The notes under the pieces were generated by a model. The model was not told the origin of the DNA. It was given only the letters and a program-made list of their open reading frames with translations, and made no database searches. 64,000 nt of DNA, from assembly GCF_023898865.1 (NCBI RefSeq), contig NZ_JAGSOV010000086.1, forward strand, positions 1 to 64,000, read 5' to 3'. The translations under genes were made by a program, and so were the position numbers. This document shows, one piece after another, positions 6,941 through 64,000 of this stretch. Position 1 is the first letter of the stretch; each line of letters begins with the position of its first letter. This stretch comes from Pseudonocardia humida. Lineage in GTDB: Bacteria; Actinomycetota; Actinomycetes; Mycobacteriales; Pseudonocardiaceae.

Positions 6941-7519
6941 ACCACAGCTCAGCCTGCATGCCGTCGAGCACGAGTTCGGTGCGGTCGATCTCGTCGTCGA
7001 CAGTGCGCCGTAGACCGTGGCACAACGCCGCAAACCGCGTGACATGAGCGAGGTGGGCTCCGGTTGAGCTCGGGCCCCCGGACACCTGATGACTGGTCAG
7101 GTCCCGAGCGCATTTTGCTCGGCGGCGGAGCGGCATCGTCGAGCTGCCGTCGATCGGGCGTCCATGCGAGCGAACCTCTGCTGTCGCAGTGGTCGGGTTC
7201 GGCCCGAGGAGCGCACCTGTGTAGCGGTGCTACACGACGCCCTCCGTGCGGCGGCTGGCACTCCTGTGGCCTCCGGACGATCGGCCCTGCGGCCGTTTGA
7301 CCAGATATCCGGCACCGGTGAGCTACTGGCGGAGGTGGAGCACGGCCGCTTCAACGCCAGCGTCTGCTCAGCGGCTGGCGGTCAGGTTTGCGCGCGTACA
7401 CCGGCCGCTCCCTGCCCCCGCACATGGAGCCGTGGAAGGAGCCGTCGAGGAGTACCGGACGTACGAGCGCGATGATCGCGGACCTGCCCGCCGCTCTGAA
7501 GCAAGTGGGCTACGGGGCG
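6941..7519. other. Gene-poor stretch between regulator and TerY-P-like island
   Basis: About 580 bases with no reading frame I trust. It contains two adjacent stems that could stop transcription of the SARP gene: CCTGA/TCAGG at 7085-7101 and CCGAGC/GCTCGG at 7104-7122. It also holds a perfect inverted repeat at 7219-7235. Short frames here have poor third-position bias, which suggests decayed DNA at the edge of an acquired island. Confidence 0.5.
7219..7235. repeat. Perfect inverted repeat GTGTAGC/GCTACAC
   Basis: GTGTAGC (7219-7225) and GCTACAC (7229-7235) are perfectly complementary around GGT. The arm resembles the GTAGCA/TGCTAC arms of the dyad in front of the P450 at 691-707, but in the opposite sense. 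It may be an operator or a relic of a regulatory region. No start codon with a good gene follows. Confidence 0.35.
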
Positions 7520-8782
7520 TCATAGCTTGCGGCGCAGCACCGGTAACGCACAGGCGAAGACGACGATTGCGGTGATCACCCCCACGGGCCCAGTCGGCCC
7601 TCGGTTCGCGGCGACGATGACCTCAAGAAGCAGTGCGAACGCCAGCGCGACCACCCCGGCCAACGCCACGGCGGCTGCGCTGACGGGCTTGTCCAGTGTG
7701 GACGGCGTGGCAGTCGCCGGGGTCGCCGGCCCGGCCTTCTGCTCCGGATCGGCGGCCGGTTTCTTCTCGCGCACGCCTGCGAACGTCTTCTCTTCGGCTG
7801 CGTCGGTGGGGCGCACGGCCTCGTCGTCGTAGAACCTGAGATCAGGGTTGGCCGACAGTGTGAAGATGTGGCGCGTTGTCGCGGTGACGCGCTCTGGACG
7901 CAGGAACGCCTCCAGGTCGCCGTCGGGCTTCCACTCGGGGTGGCAGGCCGTGCGCAGCCGTCGGACAGCGTGTTCGATCGCCGGTTCACGGATCTCGTCG
8001 AGCAGGTCCCAGGTCGGCGTATCACCGGGGTTCTCGAGATCCTTGCGGGTGAATAGGATACCCTCGTTATTGCGCCAGGCGTCCGGCCGCTGCGAGAGCG
8101 CCAGCAACCCGGTGTAGATGACCAGCGAGGGAAAGGTGTCCATCCACCGGCCCCAGGTGCGGCCCACGTGCTGGTAGTTGGGGTGGCCCGTCTCCTTCGG
8201 CCTGCGGAAGTCCCCAGCGTCGAAGGCGGCTATCCAGGACCCGTCGAAGTCGACGAGCCGCAGTGACCCCGAGGGCTCGACGAGCACGTTGCCATGTTGC
8301 AGGTCGCCGTGCGCGAAATCGGAGGTCTGCACCTGGTGGACTCGTGCGCGCCAGCCCGCTGCGAGCGACTGCAGCGCGGTGGAGTCCCGGCTCGTCAGGG
8401 CGCCGACGTGCTGGTCGAGGCGAGCGCCTTCGATCCAGTCCATCAGGACCATTGGCCATCGCCGCCCTTTTACCGCGACGGCGTTATCCACCCAGGCTGT
8501 GCGAGACACCCAGTCCTGCATGCGGTGCGCGACGAAGTGGCGATCAAGTGCCGTGTAGCGCGGCTTTTCCGACACGTTTTTCTGGATGAAGAAGCGAAGC
8601 GCCTGGTCGCAATCACCAACCTTTGCCCGGAAAACGACCGCCGCGTTGCCCGAGACCGGCAAGGGAGTTCCCCACCTCGGGTGCAATGTGAAATCCGCCC
8701 GCTGCAGCAGTGGGTCCGAGAACGCCTTCTGGGGATCACACAAGGCATCGACGTAGGCGCTGCTGTCGGGAAAGTCGGTCAT
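7520..8782 (-). CDS. Kinase-like protein of TerY-P triad with C-terminal membrane segments
   Basis: A 420-residue protein with a protein-kinase-like fold. The catalytic loop HGDLQHGN lies at 158-165 and the metal-binding DFD at 178-180. The usual beta-3 lysine is an arginine in QALRFFI (about residue 63), a substitution I recall as common in kinases paired with TerY-type vWA proteins. A charged linker (about 330-370) leads to two hydrophobic segments near the C-terminus (about 372-395 and 400-415), so it is probably bound to the cytoplasmic membrane. It is the last gene of a six-gene run and starts 17 bp after the phosphatase gene. It probably phosphorylates a partner of the vWA system; the target is unknown. 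Confidence 0.8.
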   Translation of the reverse strand: MTDFPDSSAYVDALCDPQKAFSDPLLQRADFTLHPRWGTPLPVSGNAAVVFRAKVGDCDQALRFFIQKNVSEKPRYTALDRHFVAHRMQDWVSRTAWVDNAVAVKGRRWPMVLMDWIEGARLDQHVGALTSRDSTALQSLAAGWRARVHQVQTSDFAHGDLQHGNVLVEPSGSLRLVDFDGSWIAAFDAGDFRRPKETGHPNYQHVGRTWGRWMDTFPSLVIYTGLLALSQRPDAWRNNEGILFTRKDLENPGDTPTWDLLDEIREPAIEHAVRRLRTACHPEWKPDGDLEAFLRPERVTATTRHIFTLSANPDLRFYDDEAVRPTDAAEEKTFAGVREKKPAADPEQKAGPATPATATPSTLDKPVSAAAVALAGVVALAFALLLEVIVAANRGPTGPVGVITAIVVFACALPVLRRKL

Positions 8783-8799
8783 CGTCTGCCTCTATTCGG

Positions 8800-9594
8800 T
8801 CACCGGCACAGCACTAGCACCTCGACGTCGCCCGCGGCCACCTCGGCGCGCAGCATCGTGACGTCGTCGTGCTTCATCCCGTTGTCACGCTGCTCTGCGA
8901 CCCAACGGCGGAACGCCCGCGGATGCTGGATCTCCGCGACCTCCTGCCAGCAGTCCGTGCCCGTGGCAGCGGCGCACAGCAGCCAGTGGGCCAGGGCATC
9001 GGTCACGAGGTAGAGGACGTCGCCGACCTGCAGCCTGTGGCCCTCGAACGCCAGGCGGCTGCGCATCCGGTCCCGCTCCGAAGGCCGGGTGAACACGCCG
9101 TCCGGGTTGTAGCCGAACCCATCGGCCGTGATGGTGGGTAGTTGCGCAACCAGCTGCCCGCCCTGGATGTGGAACAGGACCGCATCGCCGAGGGCGGCGC
9201 CGCGCCAATGCGGCCCTTCCCGATCGAGCAGGTGGACATCGCAGCCCAGGAACGTTGCAAACGATCCCTCCGCCTGGAGCTTGTGCTCCGCGTAGATGTT
9301 GTGGAATTCCCGCGGCTGCGCGGCCCAGCGCTCCTGCATCCTGCCGAACCAGCCGTCGAGATCGTCGCGGGTCAACGCGGCTGGCCCGTCCGGCCCGACG
9401 AACGACCCGACAAGCTGGGCTACCCAATGCACCGCGTCGTAGGCCGTCGTCGCCCCGTCGAGGACGACCAGCCGGTCCGGCCTGCCCAGGCCGGGGTCCG
9501 CAGCGCGGTACCCTGCGCCGTCCTCCCACTCGCTGTCCGGCGCGCCGGGCTTCGGCTCGTGGAAGACCACCGTCTGCAGGGAGAGCTCAGGCAT
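8800..9594 (-). CDS. PP2C-like phosphatase of TerY-P triad
   Basis: A 264-residue protein with a divergent PP2C core. The first metal-binding motif is VVLDGATT (D46-G47). GDAVLFHI lies near 136-143, GDVLYLVTDALAHW near 191-204, and KHDDVTML near 241-248 carries the last acidic pair. It should remove phosphate from the target of the neighbouring kinase. ATG at 9594 overlaps the stop of the vWA gene by 8 bases (ATGCCTGA), pointing to translational coupling. The 33 in-frame codons upstream lie inside the vWA gene and look non-coding. Confidence 0.82.
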   Translation of the reverse strand: MPELSLQTVVFHEPKPGAPDSEWEDGAGYRAADPGLGRPDRLVVLDGATTAYDAVHWVAQLVGSFVGPDGPAALTRDDLDGWFGRMQERWAAQPREFHNIYAEHKLQAEGSFATFLGCDVHLLDREGPHWRGAALGDAVLFHIQGGQLVAQLPTITADGFGYNPDGVFTRPSERDRMRSRLAFEGHRLQVGDVLYLVTDALAHWLLCAAATGTDCWQEVAEIQHPRAFRRWVAEQRDNGMKHDDVTMLRAEVAAGDVEVLVLCR

Positions 9595-10438
9595 AAGTCT
9601 CATCGTGGACGTTGAACTGGGTACCCACCGCGAGGAACTTGACCAGCGTCGCGAAGTCGGCATTGAAGACGAAGCCACGGGCGCCTGAGCCAACTGGGAT
9701 GTCGGCAGCCGCCGCGTTGTGGACCATCGGCTCGGGCAGGGGGCTGCTCATCTCGAACAAGCCCGGGCCGGGCGCAGGCAGCCCCCGCGCGTTGTCGGGG
9801 AAGAGCGTCATCGTCGCGTCGCTCGGCGAGAGGAACGCGTTGAGCAGCAGCGTCGTGCCGTGGTCTGTGCTGATCTGGGTCAGTCGCCGTGCCCAGCCGG
9901 CGAGGTCGACGTCCTTGTAGGGGCTATCGGTGACCAGGCCGTCGGTCATGTGGCAGACGATGGGGGGAAAAGAGCTCGGAAAGGCCGCGACCCACTCCTT
10001 GACATGGGAGCCGACCATCTCGAAGGCCGCGCAGGCGGGCGTGCTGTAGCCGTGGGCGGGCTCGTACCAAACCGGAAGGCCGGGCCGGGCGCCCGGACCG
10101 CCGTCCTGCACGCGAAGCGGGTGATCGGCCAGCTCAGGCAGTGGGACGATGAATCGGTCGGCGAGCGCGACGGGAAGCGCCGACTCCACGCCTTCGCCGC
10201 TGCGGCGCGGGCACAGCCCGTATCCGTAGATGCCGACGTAGAAGTACAGGTACATCGGCGCGTCGTGCACCTTCGTCGACTTGACGCACAGCTCGAAGAG
10301 CATCTTGTTGATAGCCTGCGCCGCGCCCTGAGCGAGCGTGAGGTTCGAGCCGCCCCATGACGCGCGCATGGAGTCCGAGCGGTCGACCAGGAAGATGATG
10401 CAGCCGGGGTTCTGACGAGAGAAGGTCTGGCTGTACAA
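9587..10438 (-). CDS. TerY-like von Willebrand factor A domain protein
   Basis: A 283-residue vWA protein. The MIDAS motif DRSDS is at residues 19-23, followed by the expected threonine/aspartate positions (CHMTDGLVTD near 165-175). vWA proteins of this type bind a metal and act as scaffolds. In the family literature TerY-like vWA, a PP2C phosphatase and a kinase form a conserved triad. It sits 25 bp after the zinc-ribbon membrane protein gene and overlaps the phosphatase gene. No signal peptide is seen. Confidence 0.88.
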   Translation of the reverse strand: MYSQTFSRQNPGCIIFLVDRSDSMRASWGGSNLTLAQGAAQAINKMLFELCVKSTKVHDAPMYLYFYVGIYGYGLCPRRSGEGVESALPVALADRFIVPLPELADHPLRVQDGGPGARPGLPVWYEPAHGYSTPACAAFEMVGSHVKEWVAAFPSSFPPIVCHMTDGLVTDSPYKDVDLAGWARRLTQISTDHGTTLLLNAFLSPSDATMTLFPDNARGLPAPGPGLFEMSSPLPEPMVHNAAAADIPVGSGARGFVFNADFATLVKFLAVGTQFNVHDETYA

Positions 10439-10463
10439 GCGGGTCTCCTCGGGCAGTGAGCGG

Positions 10464-11135
10464 TCAGGCGGTGTCGGTGCCGTCGACGGGTGCGGCGGCC
10501 GGGCGGACGACGGTCGCGGGCCACGGCCTGCCCCGCGCCCACGTCCACTCGTGATGGCGCCGCAGGCAGGTGAAGATCAGCTCGTCGCCTGCGCCCCGGC
10601 GGACGTCGACGTCGAAGTCCCCGCATTCGGCGCACTGCACAATGCGGCGCACCGGCGGCCGGGAGGTTCGAGCCGCATTGGGTACGGCGTAGGCCTGGTG
10701 GGCGGGTGGGCGGATATCTGGAGGTGGCTGCGGCGACCGGATTGGCGCGAACCTCGGCGTCCTCGTCGTGGTGTCCGGGCGCCGGGAGGCCGCCGGTTCG
10801 TCGTCGTACCAGGGCGTGTCCTGCGGGCGGGAGGTGTCCAGGCCGAACACAGGGGGCCACGGCCGTGGAGGCGTCCGGCGGCCGGGCGGGGGTGGTGACG
10901 ACGGTGGCGGCTGGACGGGCCCGCGCAGGCGTCGACTGGGGCTAGTCTGCAGCGAGCCGATGGTGAGTGCCGCGAGCACCGTCACCACCATGACCACGAA
11001 CAGCATGAGACCCGGCCTCGGCAGCCCGTAGCCGATCGCGAGCGCGAACATGCCGAGCAGACCGCCCACCAGCGCGGCCGCGGTGACGGTGACCAGCTGC
11101 AGGAAGTCTGCCGTGCGGCGGTCGCGCGACCTCAC
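10464..11135 (-). CDS. Two-pass membrane protein with proline-rich linker and zinc-ribbon-like tail
   Basis: A 223-residue protein. Two transmembrane helices (about 11-37 and 42-60) are followed by a long Pro/Arg-rich disordered linker (about 64-165). A compact C-terminal motif has C168-x2-C171, C190 and H194/H195, which looks like a zinc ribbon. Zinc-ribbon modules are known partners of TerY-type vWA proteins, so this may anchor the triad at the membrane. GTG at 11135 overlaps the stop of the preceding gene (GTGA). I know no named family for the full protein. Confidence 0.65.
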   Translation of the reverse strand: MRSRDRRTADFLQLVTVTAAALVGGLLGMFALAIGYGLPRPGLMLFVVMVVTVLAALTIGSLQTSPSRRLRGPVQPPPSSPPPPGRRTPPRPWPPVFGLDTSRPQDTPWYDDEPAASRRPDTTTRTPRFAPIRSPQPPPDIRPPAHQAYAVPNAARTSRPPVRRIVQCAECGDFDVDVRRGAGDELIFTCLRRHHEWTWARGRPWPATVVRPAAAPVDGTDTA

Positions 11136-11386
11136 GGGACGTCCTCCGGTAGCGACTCGGGTTCATCGGACTCCGCCGGTGTTTCCTCGGGCCACGGCAT
11201 CCTGGGGAGGTCCTTGGGGTAATCCTTGGGGAATGCGGGCTCGGTTGTCGGCACCATCGTGGATGGGGGTGGCGGCGGCACGGTGGTGGGTTCAGCGTCG
11301 ATCAGCCTGCCGAGCCCGAATACGATGCCGAAGGACGCGACCAACGTCACGGTCTGTGCGGCGCCACCGACCCTCATCGTCAGCAT
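11132..11386 (-). CDS. Small single-pass membrane protein
   Basis: An 84-residue protein with one N-terminal hydrophobic helix (about 9-29), then a run of prolines and an acidic tail (PEETPAESDEPESLPEDVP). It overlaps the next gene by 4 bases and starts 3 bp after the TIR gene stop, so it is clearly part of the same operon. The N-terminal helix could also be a signal anchor. Function unknown; a membrane adaptor is a guess from context. Confidence 0.6.
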   Translation of the reverse strand: MLTMRVGGAAQTVTLVASFGIVFGLGRLIDAEPTTVPPPPPSTMVPTTEPAFPKDYPKDLPRMPWPEETPAESDEPESLPEDVP

Positions 11387-11389
11387 TCC

Positions 11390-12826
11390 TCAGATCGGCG
11401 TCGGGCTGTTGAGGATGACGGCCAGCGTGACGACCGCGATGGCGACGCTCACCACCCCCCAGACGATCCCGAGGACAGAGGACCACCGAGCGCCCGCCAC
11501 GTCGCCCTTGGCTGTCCGTCTCACCGCCGCGGTCGAGAACACCGCGGCCACCAGTCCCGCGCCCAGTGGCAGGGTGAAGATCGCCACGGTCGGGCCCCGC
11601 CCCACGCTGACGACGAGCACCGCAAACGCGAGGTCCACGACGAGCGCTGCGATGGCCAGCGCACGGGAGTACGTCACGACGGCTGGGAACGTCCCCAGGG
11701 ATTCGATCGGGGTGTCCTCGACGGCCGTCTCCGGCGCGGTCCTCCTCGTCTCCTGTTCCGAGCTGCGTGACTCCCCGGGGGTAGGGGTTCTCGCTGCGTC
11801 CGACGTCTCGGGGGGATCGTCGGTCGTCGCCGACCACCCGATTCCCGCGAACTGCGCGGTCGGCGCTCCCAGATCGGACTGGTGCTCACGTTCCGCCGTG
11901 GGTGCCCCTGGATCGCCACCGTCCTTTGTGCCACGGCCGATGCCCAGGAAAAGCCTCGGATGCGGCAGGGAACACGATCGATCAGCAACGGGTTCGCCGG
12001 TCTGACGCGCTTCCTGTCGAGCGCGGCCTTCCTGCATTTCGCCGACCAGCTCGCTGATCCGGGTGAGGAACTCCGTGCGCGCTTTATCCTCGGACCAGGA
12101 ATCGGGCGCGGGATCCCGGACGTCTTCCGGGATCGGGGGTTCACGAGGGGGTCGCCCGGCCATAACGTCCTCGAACACCTCGTGGGCCAGCATCACGTAG
12201 CGGATCGCCTTCTCGGCCGCCACCGTCCGCCAAGGGCTGCGCAGCATCTTCTTGAGCAACGCCACGATGTCGGTCCGCGCCGAGGCGTCGGTCTCCTCGC
12301 TCAGTGAGCGGTGCAGCTTGTCGACCACCTCGAGTTGCGCGGTGTTGCCGAGGTTCCCGTCCTCGATCAGCCTGCGAATCTCGCCGAGGTAGGCGAAGGG
12401 GATGGCGGGCTCGGTGGGCAGGGGATCGGGCAAGGGGCCTGCGCGTTTCGCCGCACGGTCCGCCTCGTGGAGAACCGCGAAGGCGGTAGTGATGTCGTCG
12501 GGGCGGAAGACGATGTTCTGCAGGCCCGCGAGCAGGTTCGACCGCTCGGAAGTGAGCGGACCGATCTGCACCGGCAGGATCTCGCGCTTGCACGCTCTCG
12601 CGTAGTCCAGCTCCGCCAGGCAGGCCTGGGACTCCAGCGAGCGGTCCGACAGCACGAACAAGAACACGTCCGCAGCGCGGATCTGCCGGAGGATGGCGTC
12701 CCACCAGATCTCGCCGCCCTCGAGGTCGTGGTCGTACCACACCTCTCGGTGGACCTTCTCGAACCCTCGCGCGAGGACCTTCACGCTCGCCTCGTCATCC
12801 CGCGAGTAGCTCATGAAGATCGGCAT
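11390..12826 (-). CDS. TIR domain protein with C-terminal membrane segments
   Basis: A 478-residue protein. An N-terminal TIR domain (about 1-130) opens MPIFMSYSRDDE, has a BB-loop region at 31-45 and a likely catalytic glutamate E72 in CLAELDYA. Bacterial TIR domains of this kind can cleave NAD+ or make signalling products. A helical region (about 170-290), a low-complexity linker and two to three membrane helices (about 390-475, DUF4190-like) follow. ATG at 12826 is chosen because the TIR fold begins there; ATG at 12874 is an alternative. It is the first gene of the six-gene minus-strand run and is the likely effector or sensor. Confidence 0.85.
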   Translation of the reverse strand: MPIFMSYSRDDEASVKVLARGFEKVHREVWYDHDLEGGEIWWDAILRQIRAADVFLFVLSDRSLESQACLAELDYARACKREILPVQIGPLTSERSNLLAGLQNIVFRPDDITTAFAVLHEADRAAKRAGPLPDPLPTEPAIPFAYLGEIRRLIEDGNLGNTAQLEVVDKLHRSLSEETDASARTDIVALLKKMLRSPWRTVAAEKAIRYVMLAHEVFEDVMAGRPPREPPIPEDVRDPAPDSWSEDKARTEFLTRISELVGEMQEGRARQEARQTGEPVADRSCSLPHPRLFLGIGRGTKDGGDPGAPTAEREHQSDLGAPTAQFAGIGWSATTDDPPETSDAARTPTPGESRSSEQETRRTAPETAVEDTPIESLGTFPAVVTYSRALAIAALVVDLAFAVLVVSVGRGPTVAIFTLPLGAGLVAAVFSTAAVRRTAKGDVAGARWSSVLGIVWGVVSVAIAVVTLAVILNSPTPI

Positions 12827-13215
12827 TGCGCTTAACAGCTCCCGGTTTGCTCTGGCCTCCGGAAGGAGAGGCATGGCGATGGACGCGTGATACACCTCGC
12901 CCCGGCCCTGCCGAGTGTTATGGGTACTGACCGATGGCGACGAAATCGCTGTCACAGCCACCGGACGGCGCGACGCCCGCCATCCATCGGTCCACGATCT
13001 TCTGCGTCTCCTCTACCGTCACGTCCGGCAGCCGCTGGTGCGGCCGAGTGATGTCGACGCTGGCAGGGGCGCACGGACTGTGAACCGCCCTCCATCACAG
13101 AGCGTCCGGATCCATCAGTGCGGTGCGCGCAGACCCTGGCACGACGCCGCCGCGGGTCATCCGCACGATCGTCGCCGTCTCCTCCGGCACACGTCGTCCG
13201 CTGGGGTGGAACAGC
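12827..13215. other. Unassigned stretch upstream of the TIR operon with coding-like fragments
   Basis: On the minus strand one frame reads two coding-like pieces split by a single TGA at 13095-13097. The upstream piece ends MTRGGVVPGSARTALMDPDAL. The downstream piece contains VEETQKIVDRWMAGVAPSGG and ends at a TAA near 12926. Neither has a convincing start or a family I recognise. It may be a small gene broken by a stop, or the remnant of a gene at the island border. The TIR promoter must also lie here, but I see no clear boxes. Confidence 0.35.
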
Positions 13216-13896
13216 TCACCCGTGGTGGCGGCGGACCATCTCGGCGATCCATACGGGCGCGAACGGTGACGTGCAGTTCGGGGGCGTCGGGTAGTCCTTG
13301 AGCACCTCGAGGCGCTCACCGATGTCGACCGCGCGGGCGCGGTGCTCGGCGTGCTCGATCCCGATCTGGGCCAGGCAGTGGTTCATCGCCCACTGCAGCC
13401 GGTCCGGAGCGTCCTTCATCTCCGCCTCGATGACGTCGAGCAGCCCGGCGAGGTCGAGACCGTCGGGCCGCTTCGCCACCCGCTCGGTGGTCAACGCCCA
13501 GCCCGCGCTCGCGACCACGGGATCCGGGTCCACGGACCAGGCCAGGCGCAGGTCTTCGGCGTGCGGGCTCTTCTTCACCACGTAGTTCACCAGCCAGTCG
13601 TGCACCTTGGGGGTGCGCGCCTGGCGCACCATGATGTCGAGCTCGTCGCGCTCGAACGCCTTCGGGCGGCAGATCAGCAGGGCCAGCAGCCGCGCCGCGG
13701 TGTCGCCGGTGGCCCAGAGCTGCCGGGCGAGTCCCTGCTGCGTCTTGAGCCGCTTGGCGAGCGCGCGCAGCTCGCCGAGGTTCACCCCGTGATCGTCGCC
13801 GTGCTTCTCGTTCACCTCGCGGGTCCTGGCGTCCTCCAGCGCGGCCAGTTCGGCGAGCACCTCGGACACCTGCACCTCAGCCGTCGTCTCGGCCAC
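13216..13896 (-). CDS. DNA alkylation repair protein, AlkD-like HEAT-repeat fold
   Basis: A 226-residue all-helical protein. The region LWATGDTAARLLALLICRP, then VHDWLVNYVVKK and WSVDPDPVVASAGWAL, matches the AlkC/AlkD HEAT-like family that excises alkylated bases. Length fits AlkD. GTG at 13896 is chosen for the GGAG six bases upstream; the long in-frame extension before it is antisense to another gene. The catalytic aspartate of AlkD cannot be assigned with certainty by eye. It is divergent from a methyltransferase-like gene. Confidence 0.8.
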   Translation of the reverse strand: MAETTAEVQVSEVLAELAALEDARTREVNEKHGDDHGVNLGELRALAKRLKTQQGLARQLWATGDTAARLLALLICRPKAFERDELDIMVRQARTPKVHDWLVNYVVKKSPHAEDLRLAWSVDPDPVVASAGWALTTERVAKRPDGLDLAGLLDVIEAEMKDAPDRLQWAMNHCLAQIGIEHAEHRARAVDIGERLEVLKDYPTPPNCTSPFAPVWIAEMVRRHHG

Positions 13897-63475: not shown

Positions 63476-64000
63476 GTGCCCCGTCACGGTCTCGACGGCC
63501 TGGCCGCCACCGGTGCGGCGAAGCCGCCGCGGGCGCTGCTCGTGCTGGGCGGCGCGGCGGCCGCGGTGATCGTCGCGGCCGGCCTGCAGGCGGCGGCCTG
63601 GCTGGTCGGGCCGGTGTTCCTGGCCCTGGTCGTCGTGATCACCGTCCATCCGGTGCGCCGCCGGCTGCGGGCGCTGGGCCTGCCGGGCTGGGTGGCGACG
63701 ACGGTGCTGGTCCTGATCGTCTTCGGTCTGGTGGTCGTGCTGGCCGGCGTCGTCGTCGTCGCGGTGGCGCAGCTGGTGACGGTCCTGCCGCTCTACGCCG
63801 ACGAGGCGAACGCGGTGGTCTCGTCCGGGACCGCGACCCTGGGCCGGTTCGGCGTCGGGACCGAGCAGCTGCGGGCGCTGGCCGCGTCGCTGAACTTCGC
63901 CAAGGTCCTGAGCTTCGCCAGCGGGCTGCTGCTGGGGTTGTCCAGCCTGCTGGGCAACGTCGTGTTCCTGCTGACCCTGCTGCTGTTCCTGTGCATCGAG
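63476..64000 (+). CDS. AI-2E family transporter (cut by window end)
   Basis: The first 175 codons of a polytopic membrane protein. It opens VPRHGLDGLAATGAAK, then helices VLGGAAAAVIVAAGLQAAAW and VGPVFLALVVVITVHPVRRRL, the latter with the HP motif typical of AI-2E/PerM family exporters. WVATTVLVLIVFGLVVVLAG follows. GTG 63476 has AAGGAGGA upstream. The full protein is usually 350-400 residues, so about half lies outside the window. Confidence 0.85.
   Translation, partial: MPRHGLDGLAATGAAKPPRALLVLGGAAAAVIVAAGLQAAAWLVGPVFLALVVVITVHPVRRRLRALGLPGWVATTVLVLIVFGLVVVLAGVVVVAVAQLVTVLPLYADEANAVVSSGTATLGRFGVGTEQLRALAASLNFAKVLSFASGLLLGLSSLLGNVVFLLTLLLFLCIE

What the first reader, a model, noticed from the sequence alone, without database searches (positions are those of the whole stretch)
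7520..12826. TerY-P-like vWA/PP2C/kinase triad fused by operon to a TIR protein
Six genes on one strand are packed with overlaps or gaps of 25 bp or less: TIR protein, small membrane protein, membrane zinc-ribbon protein, vWA protein, PP2C phosphatase, kinase-like protein. The vWA (MIDAS DRSDS), PP2C and kinase (HGDLQHGN, DFD) trio is the TerY-phosphorylation triad known from comparative genomics as a predicted conflict or stress module. A TIR protein with a probable catalytic Glu and membrane tail at the head gives the module an NAD-consuming candidate effector. I infer a membrane-located phospho-switch that controls the TIR protein on phage or stress sensing. I cannot recall a described system with exactly this six-gene set.
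Basis: partly seen in the sequence, partly recalled or inferred. Interest (0 to 1): 0.8.

Follow-up and report, generated by a model that had tools for sequence, protein, structure and literature searches.

The report
Membrane kinase-phosphatase switch with TIR enzyme
A six-gene bacterial operon joins a probable NAD-destroying TIR protein to a membrane-anchored kinase and phosphatase pair related to a known anti-phage system, and the same gene set recurs in distant relatives, so it is probably one working unit, although its function has not been tested.

Summary
In detail: six minus-strand genes (7520-12826) encode TIR, single-TM protein (SMP), membrane zinc-ribbon protein (ZNR), TerY-type vWA, PP2C and kinase, spaced -17 to +25 bp. 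PADLOC TerY-P profiles match the last three (E 7e-44, 5e-22, 1.5e-32). The kinase lacks the OB or zinc-ribbon tail of described TerY-P kinases and ends in a TM hairpin; the ribbon sits on a separate membrane protein.

A ZNR-vWA-PP2C-kinase core of this subgroup was found in 34 actinobacterial loci; 27 of 32 checked carry an SMP-like gene just upstream. A TIR gene lies nearby in 16 of 34: 12 of 13 Pseudonocardiaceae genomes of a family search (chance expectation 0.27), 0 of 10 Frankiaceae. The exact six-gene order recurs in two other families, and core and TIR trees agree for those three loci.

Best reading: a membrane-located, phosphorylation-controlled TIR system, a new variant of the TerY-P kind. 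TerY-P itself is an experimentally shown anti-phage system. TIR control is inferred; defence is plausible but untested. The genes near the window locus show no defence island. Four Frankiaceae loci have a kinase-FHA-ABC exporter instead, so the core seems a general switch with exchangeable outputs.

The parts
11390..12826 (-). TIR protein, 478 aa: TIR domain (about 1-130), helical region (145-222), disordered Pro/Ser/Thr-rich linker (280-384), C-terminal TM helices (390-408, 413-431, 454-472)
11132..11386 (-). SMP: one N-terminal TM helix (13-31) plus a 50-residue Pro-rich acidic tail; short member of a positional family whose other members carry a domain with two conserved Cys
10464..11135 (-). 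ZNR: N-terminal hydrophobic stretch 9-60 (probable 2TM hairpin), Pro-rich linker, C-terminal zinc ribbon (CxxC...C...HHEWTW)
   Evidence: homologue upstream of vWA in 34 of 34 subgroup-B loci
9587..10438 (-). TerY-type vWA protein with MIDAS (DRSDS ... TDG)
   Evidence: PADLOC TerY E 7.4e-44; alignment A1
8800..9603 (-). PP2C-type phosphatase (metal-binding DGA, GD, TDA, DDVT kept)
   Evidence: PADLOC PP2C E 5.3e-22; motif counts
7520..8782 (-). Protein-kinase-fold protein with C-terminal TM hairpin (372-390, 398-416); Arg63 at the beta-3 Lys position
   Evidence: PADLOC STK_OB E 1.5e-32 over residues 4-306 only; model m328785673685; Foldseek kinase folds E 4e-8; hydropathy

Best explanation
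One membrane-located signalling and effector system. Shown: a five-gene core (SMP, ZNR, vWA, PP2C, kinase) is conserved in gene order across several actinobacterial families, is related to TerY-P, and is repeatedly paired with a TIR protein of NADase type that has its own membrane tail. Inferred: SMP (outside) and the ZNR ribbon (inside) sense an envelope or infection signal; the vWA protein scaffolds the complex; kinase and PP2C set the phosphorylation state of the TIR protein (for example its disordered linker) or of ZNR; on triggering, TIR domains cluster at the membrane and cleave NAD or make an ADP-ribose signal that stops growth or kills the infected cell. In some relatives a SLATT pore protein next door may read that signal. 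The TIR is one of several outputs that can be attached to the core.
For: Trio identified by TerY-P profiles. ZNR in 34 of 34 subgroup-B loci and in none of 7 other TerY loci with 19.5-20 kb held. SMP-like gene upstream of ZNR in 27 of 32 loci (counted by eye). The exact order TIR-SMP-ZNR-vWA-PP2C-kinase recurs in L093 and L094. These three form a clade in the core tree (100/99) and, with metagenome homologues P0001-P0004, P0006 and P0007, in the TIR tree (100/99). Linked TIRs stand in three clades, one of them far from the other two, so pairing arose at least twice. SLATT genes beside L093, L094 and L044. TIR fold and Glu; kinase and PP2C catalytic residues kept. TerY-P protects against phages (PMC7699616, PMC10889362).
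Against: TIR is absent from 18 of 34 subgroup-B loci, all 10 Frankiaceae among them; 7 of the 18 have under 5 kb held on one side of the vWA, 11 do not. No phosphorylation, NADase or phage data exist for any member known to me. Canonical TerY-P let most infected cells survive (PMC10889362), which does not suggest cell death. Arg replaces the usual beta-3 Lys in 34 of 34 subgroup kinases, so activity may be altered. The window SMP lacks the domain that would be the obvious sensor. Scanned window neighbours are metabolic or regulatory. TIR genes are common in these genomes (0-40 per genome), and TIRs of the same wider group also occur away from the core (G190 rows L154/L160). Core and TIR trees disagree for L064: its core joins the window clade (92/93) but its TIR is of the short type. 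Shared inheritance makes the 10 convergent cases close to one event.
Confidence: 0.6

Rival explanations
1. Envelope or development signalling: the core is a general membrane phospho-switch for cell-wall or stress responses, and the TIR protein makes an NAD-derived signal or regulates cell death in the hypha, not phage defence.
For: In Frankiaceae a histidine kinase and LuxR regulator pair lies upstream in 7 of 8 loci drawn (domains scanned in L061) and a kinase-FHA-ABC-ABC2 fusion downstream in 4 (L055, L056, L061, L076); SMP in other loci has a probable extracytoplasmic domain with two Cys, one matching Big_3_5 below its cut-off; scanned window flanks are metabolic or regulatory.
Against: TerY-P relatives tested so far act against phages (PMC7699616, PMC10889362); conflict-type genes lie beside L093 (SLATT) and L094 (SLATT, TPR-S, a second TIR); accessory distribution (no same-genus genome among the 36 of 297 with a TerY match other than the window's own).
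Confidence: 0.3
2. Two neighbouring units: a complete TerY-P-like core and an independent TIR defence gene that share a promoter or an island but do not act together.
For: TIR is missing in over half of the core loci; it sits on the opposite strand in 10 loci; TIR genes are abundant; L064 shows that TIR type and core can be exchanged.
Against: Linkage far above chance; same six-gene order in three families with agreeing trees; at least two unrelated TIR lineages sit beside the same core.
Confidence: 0.15
3. The kinase is inactive or only nucleotide-binding (Arg63 for Lys) and acts as a scaffold; PP2C works on a host kinase product.
For: Arg at the beta-3 position in 34 of 34 subgroup-B kinases; no Glu among the invariant or nearly invariant columns of the helix-C region (residues 73-85).
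Against: HGDLQHGN and the metal-binding Asp are kept in 34 of 34; 8 of 32 distinct comparison kinases also carry Arg; a phosphatase gene lies beside it in all 34 loci.
Confidence: 0.2

Closest known systems
TerY-P anti-phage system (TerY vWA, PP2C, STK-OB), Gao et al. 2020 as reported in PMC7699616; P. aeruginosa TerY-P in PMC10889362
   Same: vWA, PP2C and kinase genes side by side; PADLOC profiles match all three
   Different: Kinase has a C-terminal TM hairpin in place of the OB tail; ZNR, SMP and TIR genes added; beta-3 Arg fixed in this subgroup
TerY-P with kinase-zinc ribbon fusion in CoCoNuT systems (PMC11090510)
   Same: Triad plus a zinc ribbon
   Different: Ribbon is on a separate membrane protein at the other end of the trio; none of the genes scanned beside the window operon is a McrBC-like GTPase, helicase or HEPN gene
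GAP1-N2 DO-GTPase conflict systems, third actinobacterial theme (Kaur et al. 2020, PMC7159879)
   Same: That paper already mentions a kinase fused to TM helices next to PP2C and a standalone vWA
   Different: No GTPase or GAP1 match among the genes scanned beside the window operon; TIR not mentioned in that passage. L041 of this subgroup looks like that theme (GAP1-M, below its cut-off)
TIR NADase effectors (Thoeris ThsB, SPARTA TIR-APAZ, SARM1, Cat1)
   Different: Membrane tail; controlled, on this reading, by a kinase/phosphatase switch rather than by a nucleotide signal or Argonaute

Membership tests
TerY-P (canonical) | TerY-type vWA gene | tested here: met
   PADLOC TerY E 7.4e-44
TerY-P (canonical) | PP2C phosphatase gene adjacent | tested here: met
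   PADLOC PP2C E 5.3e-22
TerY-P (canonical) | Ser/Thr-kinase-like gene adjacent | tested here: met
   PADLOC STK_OB E 1.5e-32; protein-kinase fold
TerY-P (canonical) | Kinase C-terminal OB fold or zinc ribbon | tested here: not met
   Profile match covers positions 3-306 of 562 and stops at residue 306; C-terminus is a TM hairpin
TerY-P (canonical) | Anti-phage activity | not testable with these tools
   No experiment
TIR NADase | TIR fold | tested here: met
TIR NADase | Catalytic Glu | tested here: met
   E72 invariant in 21 of 21; aligns with the Glu of Cat1 in a weak sequence match, E 0.56. That this Glu is catalytic is recalled knowledge of the family
TIR NADase | NAD cleavage | not testable with these tools
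   Needs enzyme assay
GAP1-N2 GTPase conflict system | DO-GTPase plus GAP1 genes in the neighbourhood | tested here: not met
   Pfam of the six operon genes and ten window proteins at 0.7-23.3 kb: none; the rest of the window was not scanned
Thoeris | ThsA partner gene | tested here: inconclusive
   Weak ThsB profile hits for the TIR only (best E 5e-4); no SIR2 or Macro-TM gene among the 16 window proteins scanned with Pfam, but not every window gene was scanned

The most novel reading that the evidence does not exclude
A bacterial counterpart in layout to receptor-kinase-TIR innate immunity: a membrane-spanning sensor (SMP), a membrane zinc-ribbon adaptor, a vWA scaffold and an opposed kinase/phosphatase pair that gates a membrane-tethered TIR NADase by phosphorylation, with a detachable output (TIR, TIR plus SLATT pore, or FHA-ABC exporter) on one conserved core.
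Probability: 0.35. Interest if true: 0.85.

Novelty: new variant of a known kind. Interest (0 to 1): 0.62.

Why it matters
The passages on TerY-P that I saw name no effector for it. Here a TerY-P-like switch is tied to an enzyme type with an easily measured activity (NAD loss), in the same six-gene block in three families. That makes the open question, what the kinase/phosphatase/vWA trio controls and how, directly testable. If phosphorylation gates a bacterial TIR enzyme, it would add a control mode to the nucleotide-signal, Argonaute and CRISPR modes known for bacterial TIRs (recalled), and the core with exchangeable outputs gives a natural series for comparison.

Tried and rejected
Defence-island idea for the window locus: ten window proteins between 0.7 and 23.3 kb scanned with Pfam gave P450, GNAT, SARP/AfsR-type regulator, DNA alkylation repair, alpha/beta hydrolase, tryptophan dioxygenase, LuxR-type and AAA_16 proteins, two without a match; six of them had no PADLOC match. 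The window beyond 23.3 kb was not scanned for defence genes. tRNA, Rfam and promoter scans gave no boundary element: one tRNA at 63646, no Rfam match in bases 1-30000, no sigma-70-like site in 7000-13400.

Empty-site test: the flanking genes were sought in 30 genomes of the genus, the window's own included; the alkylation-repair gene is in 7 of 30, the regulator belongs to a large paralogous family, no simple empty site could be read, and I did not pursue it.

Plasmid and phage carriage: two distant cyanobacterial plasmid hits for the kinase, none in phages for the vWA.

SLATT as a general partner: found beside 3 of the 34 subgroup-B loci and not in the window, by a profile built from these hits (Pfam confirms all three). 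Alternative effectors in TIR-less loci: in L058, L060, L069 and L077 nothing recognised among the proteins scanned; L063 has a patatin-like phospholipase gene convergent with the kinase, not followed up.

Limits: the first TIR HMM was trained on linked TIRs, so the count was repeated with an HMM built from unlinked TIR domains only, with the same 16 loci; those unlinked domains had themselves been picked with the first HMM. TIR tree: 17 unlinked TIR loci were dropped because they did not match the HMM, plus P0005. Core tree: L080 was left out because its vWA and PP2C are split between reading frames. L096 (intermediate vWA, with ZNR, 5.4-kb contig, no TIR) is not in the 34. Comparison loci for TIR: 7 with 19.5-20 kb held, of the larger number found, taken without looking at TIR content, plus L078 and L081 with shorter flanks. 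In one search five of the 37 comparison kinases are second copies of the same place; recounted as 32. Three of 34 PP2C rows are gapped at the DDVT motif. Protein search lists show top-scoring candidates only. Literature: judged from listings and passages, showed no paper on a TerY-P/TIR operon; two searches listed only 20 of 234 and 20 of 380 papers; the library lacks most subscription papers, and Anantharaman et al. 2012 is not held. Gao et al. 2020 was not seen, only a passage of a commentary on it. Of all papers cited I saw passages, none whole.
Full report
What is there. Six minus-strand genes at 7520-12826 are open and tightly spaced. Profiles identify a TIR protein (TIR_2 E 8.5e-19) and the three TerY-P genes (PADLOC TerY 7.4e-44, PP2C 5.3e-22, STK_OB 1.5e-32). 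Pfam and NCBIfam hardly see the trio. Between TIR and trio lie an 84-aa single-TM protein (SMP) and a 223-aa protein with an N-terminal hydrophobic stretch and a C-terminal zinc ribbon (ZNR).

How it differs from TerY-P. The kinase profile match ends at residue 306 of 420; the rest is a linker and two TM helices. In TerY-P as described, the kinase carries an OB fold or a zinc ribbon at that place (PMC11090510, passages). Here the ribbon is on ZNR. That the ribbon moved from kinase to ZNR is inference. The kinase model has a protein-kinase fold (Foldseek E 4e-8). HGDLQHGN and the metal-binding Asp are kept in 34 of 34 subgroup kinases (DFD in 33, DLD in 1), but the beta-3 Lys position is Arg in all 34; of 32 distinct comparison kinases 24 have Lys and 8 Arg.

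Distribution. The TerY family is in 36 of 297 genomes of the same family; no other same-genus genome is among the 36 (20 same-genus genomes without a match are listed). The window belongs to a divergent subgroup, here called B. One scan of named genomes gave 27 loci, 25 of them subgroup B; searches of 394 class-level and 397 order-level genomes gave more.

The core. ZNR is upstream of vWA in all 34 and absent from 7 comparison TerY loci with 19.5-20 kb held; L096, an intermediate locus outside the 34, also has it. SMP-like genes (one TM, then a domain with two Cys) lie upstream of ZNR in 27 of the 32 loci checked (by eye). In 13 aligned members the two Cys are missing only from the window SMP, which lacks that domain. 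So the conserved unit is SMP-ZNR-vWA-PP2C-kinase, not the trio alone.

The TIR. A TIR gene was found in 16 of 34 subgroup-B loci and 0 of 9 other TerY loci. Of the 18 without, 10 are Frankiaceae, and 7 have under 5 kb held on one side of the vWA (L057, L059, L063, L075, L077, L079, L080). In the window's family 12 of 13 loci have it, where 0.27 is expected from TIR density. Three layouts occur: same strand at the head (window, L093, L094), convergent with the kinase (10 loci), and a short TIR upstream of the core (L062, L064, L074), with a separate membrane protein in L064 and L074. L093 and L094 have exactly TIR-SMP-ZNR-vWA-PP2C-kinase. In the TIR tree the three layouts are three clades (100/99, 100/98, 100/100). 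The first two lie in one wider group that also holds a few unlinked TIRs and a second TIR of L094; the third lies apart, so pairing arose at least twice. In the core tree window, L094 and L093 form one clade (100/99) apart from other Pseudonocardiaceae, and the convergent group another (100/100). The window block therefore seems to have travelled as a unit. The short-TIR loci are not one clade there: L064 joins the window clade (92/93), so TIR types have been exchanged. Long branches (window among them) call for caution.

Other outputs. Of 8 Frankiaceae loci drawn, 7 have an upstream histidine kinase and response regulator (the eighth, L057, is a 5-kb contig), and 4 have a large kinase-FHA-ABC-ABC2 protein downstream (L055, L056, L061, L076); L065 does not, and three contigs end too early. 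FHA domains bind phosphothreonine (established knowledge), which fits a phospho-signal from the core. L041 has a vWA protein and a GAP1-M match below its cut-off, like a theme in Kaur et al. 2020 (PMC7159879, passages), who already noted TM-fused kinases with PP2C and vWA. L064 has a dynamin-like GTPase match below its cut-off, L063 a patatin-like gene. L093, L094 and L044 have SLATT proteins.

Function. TerY-P gives phage protection (commentary PMC7699616; PAO1 tests in PMC10889362, where most cells survived). I infer a membrane-located relative whose kinase/phosphatase balance controls a TIR effector. Shown: gene content, recurrence, co-inheritance in the six-gene clade, catalytic residues, membrane segments by prediction. 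Inferred: sensing by SMP/ZNR, phosphorylation of TIR, NAD loss, defence. The envelope-signalling rival is serious because of the Frankiaceae context and the metabolic or regulatory neighbours of the window locus.

Verdict. Real, recurrent, a new variant of a known kind. Parts of it (TM kinase triad) were noted in print; no TIR pairing was found in the papers searched.

Noticed in passing
L055, L056, L061, L076: The same core is followed by a kinase-FHA-ABC-ABC2 fusion (frames of 1217-1551 aa) in four Frankiaceae loci: a different, non-TIR output.
   Followed up: partly
window 7520-8782 and 34 loci: Arg is fixed at the beta-3 Lys position of all 34 subgroup-B kinases; 8 of 32 distinct comparison kinases have Arg too.
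   Followed up: partly
L093:12712-13716, L094:12503-13423, L044:14227-15272: SLATT 2TM proteins beside TIR-linked cores; L094 also has a TPR-S gene and a second TIR gene.
   Followed up: partly
L041:11366-16103: Core linked to a membrane protein, a 547-aa vWA protein and a protein with a GAP1-M match below its cut-off, in place of TIR.
   Followed up: partly
L063:6094-7845: Patatin-like phospholipase gene convergent with the kinase in Modestobacter, whose contig ends just upstream of the core: possible other effector.
   Followed up: no
L064:6218-8713: Gene with weak dynamin/GTPase matches (below cut-offs) between a TIR/membrane gene pair and the core.
   Followed up: no
L074:13216-16362: Second TIR gene (1048-aa frame, ThsB_TIR match) convergent with the kinase in Actinomycetospora.
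   Followed up: no
L080: vWA and PP2C of the Pseudonocardia CNS-139 copy are split between frames: decayed gene or sequencing error; left as it is.
   Followed up: no
L078, L081: Distant TerY-like vWA in a planctomycete MAG (with PP2C and a 1289-aa kinase frame) and in an archaeal MAG.
   Followed up: no
G000 whole genome: 20 TIR_2 matches in the window's own genome; in the tree the window TIR stands apart from the own-genome TIRs that could be placed.
   Followed up: partly
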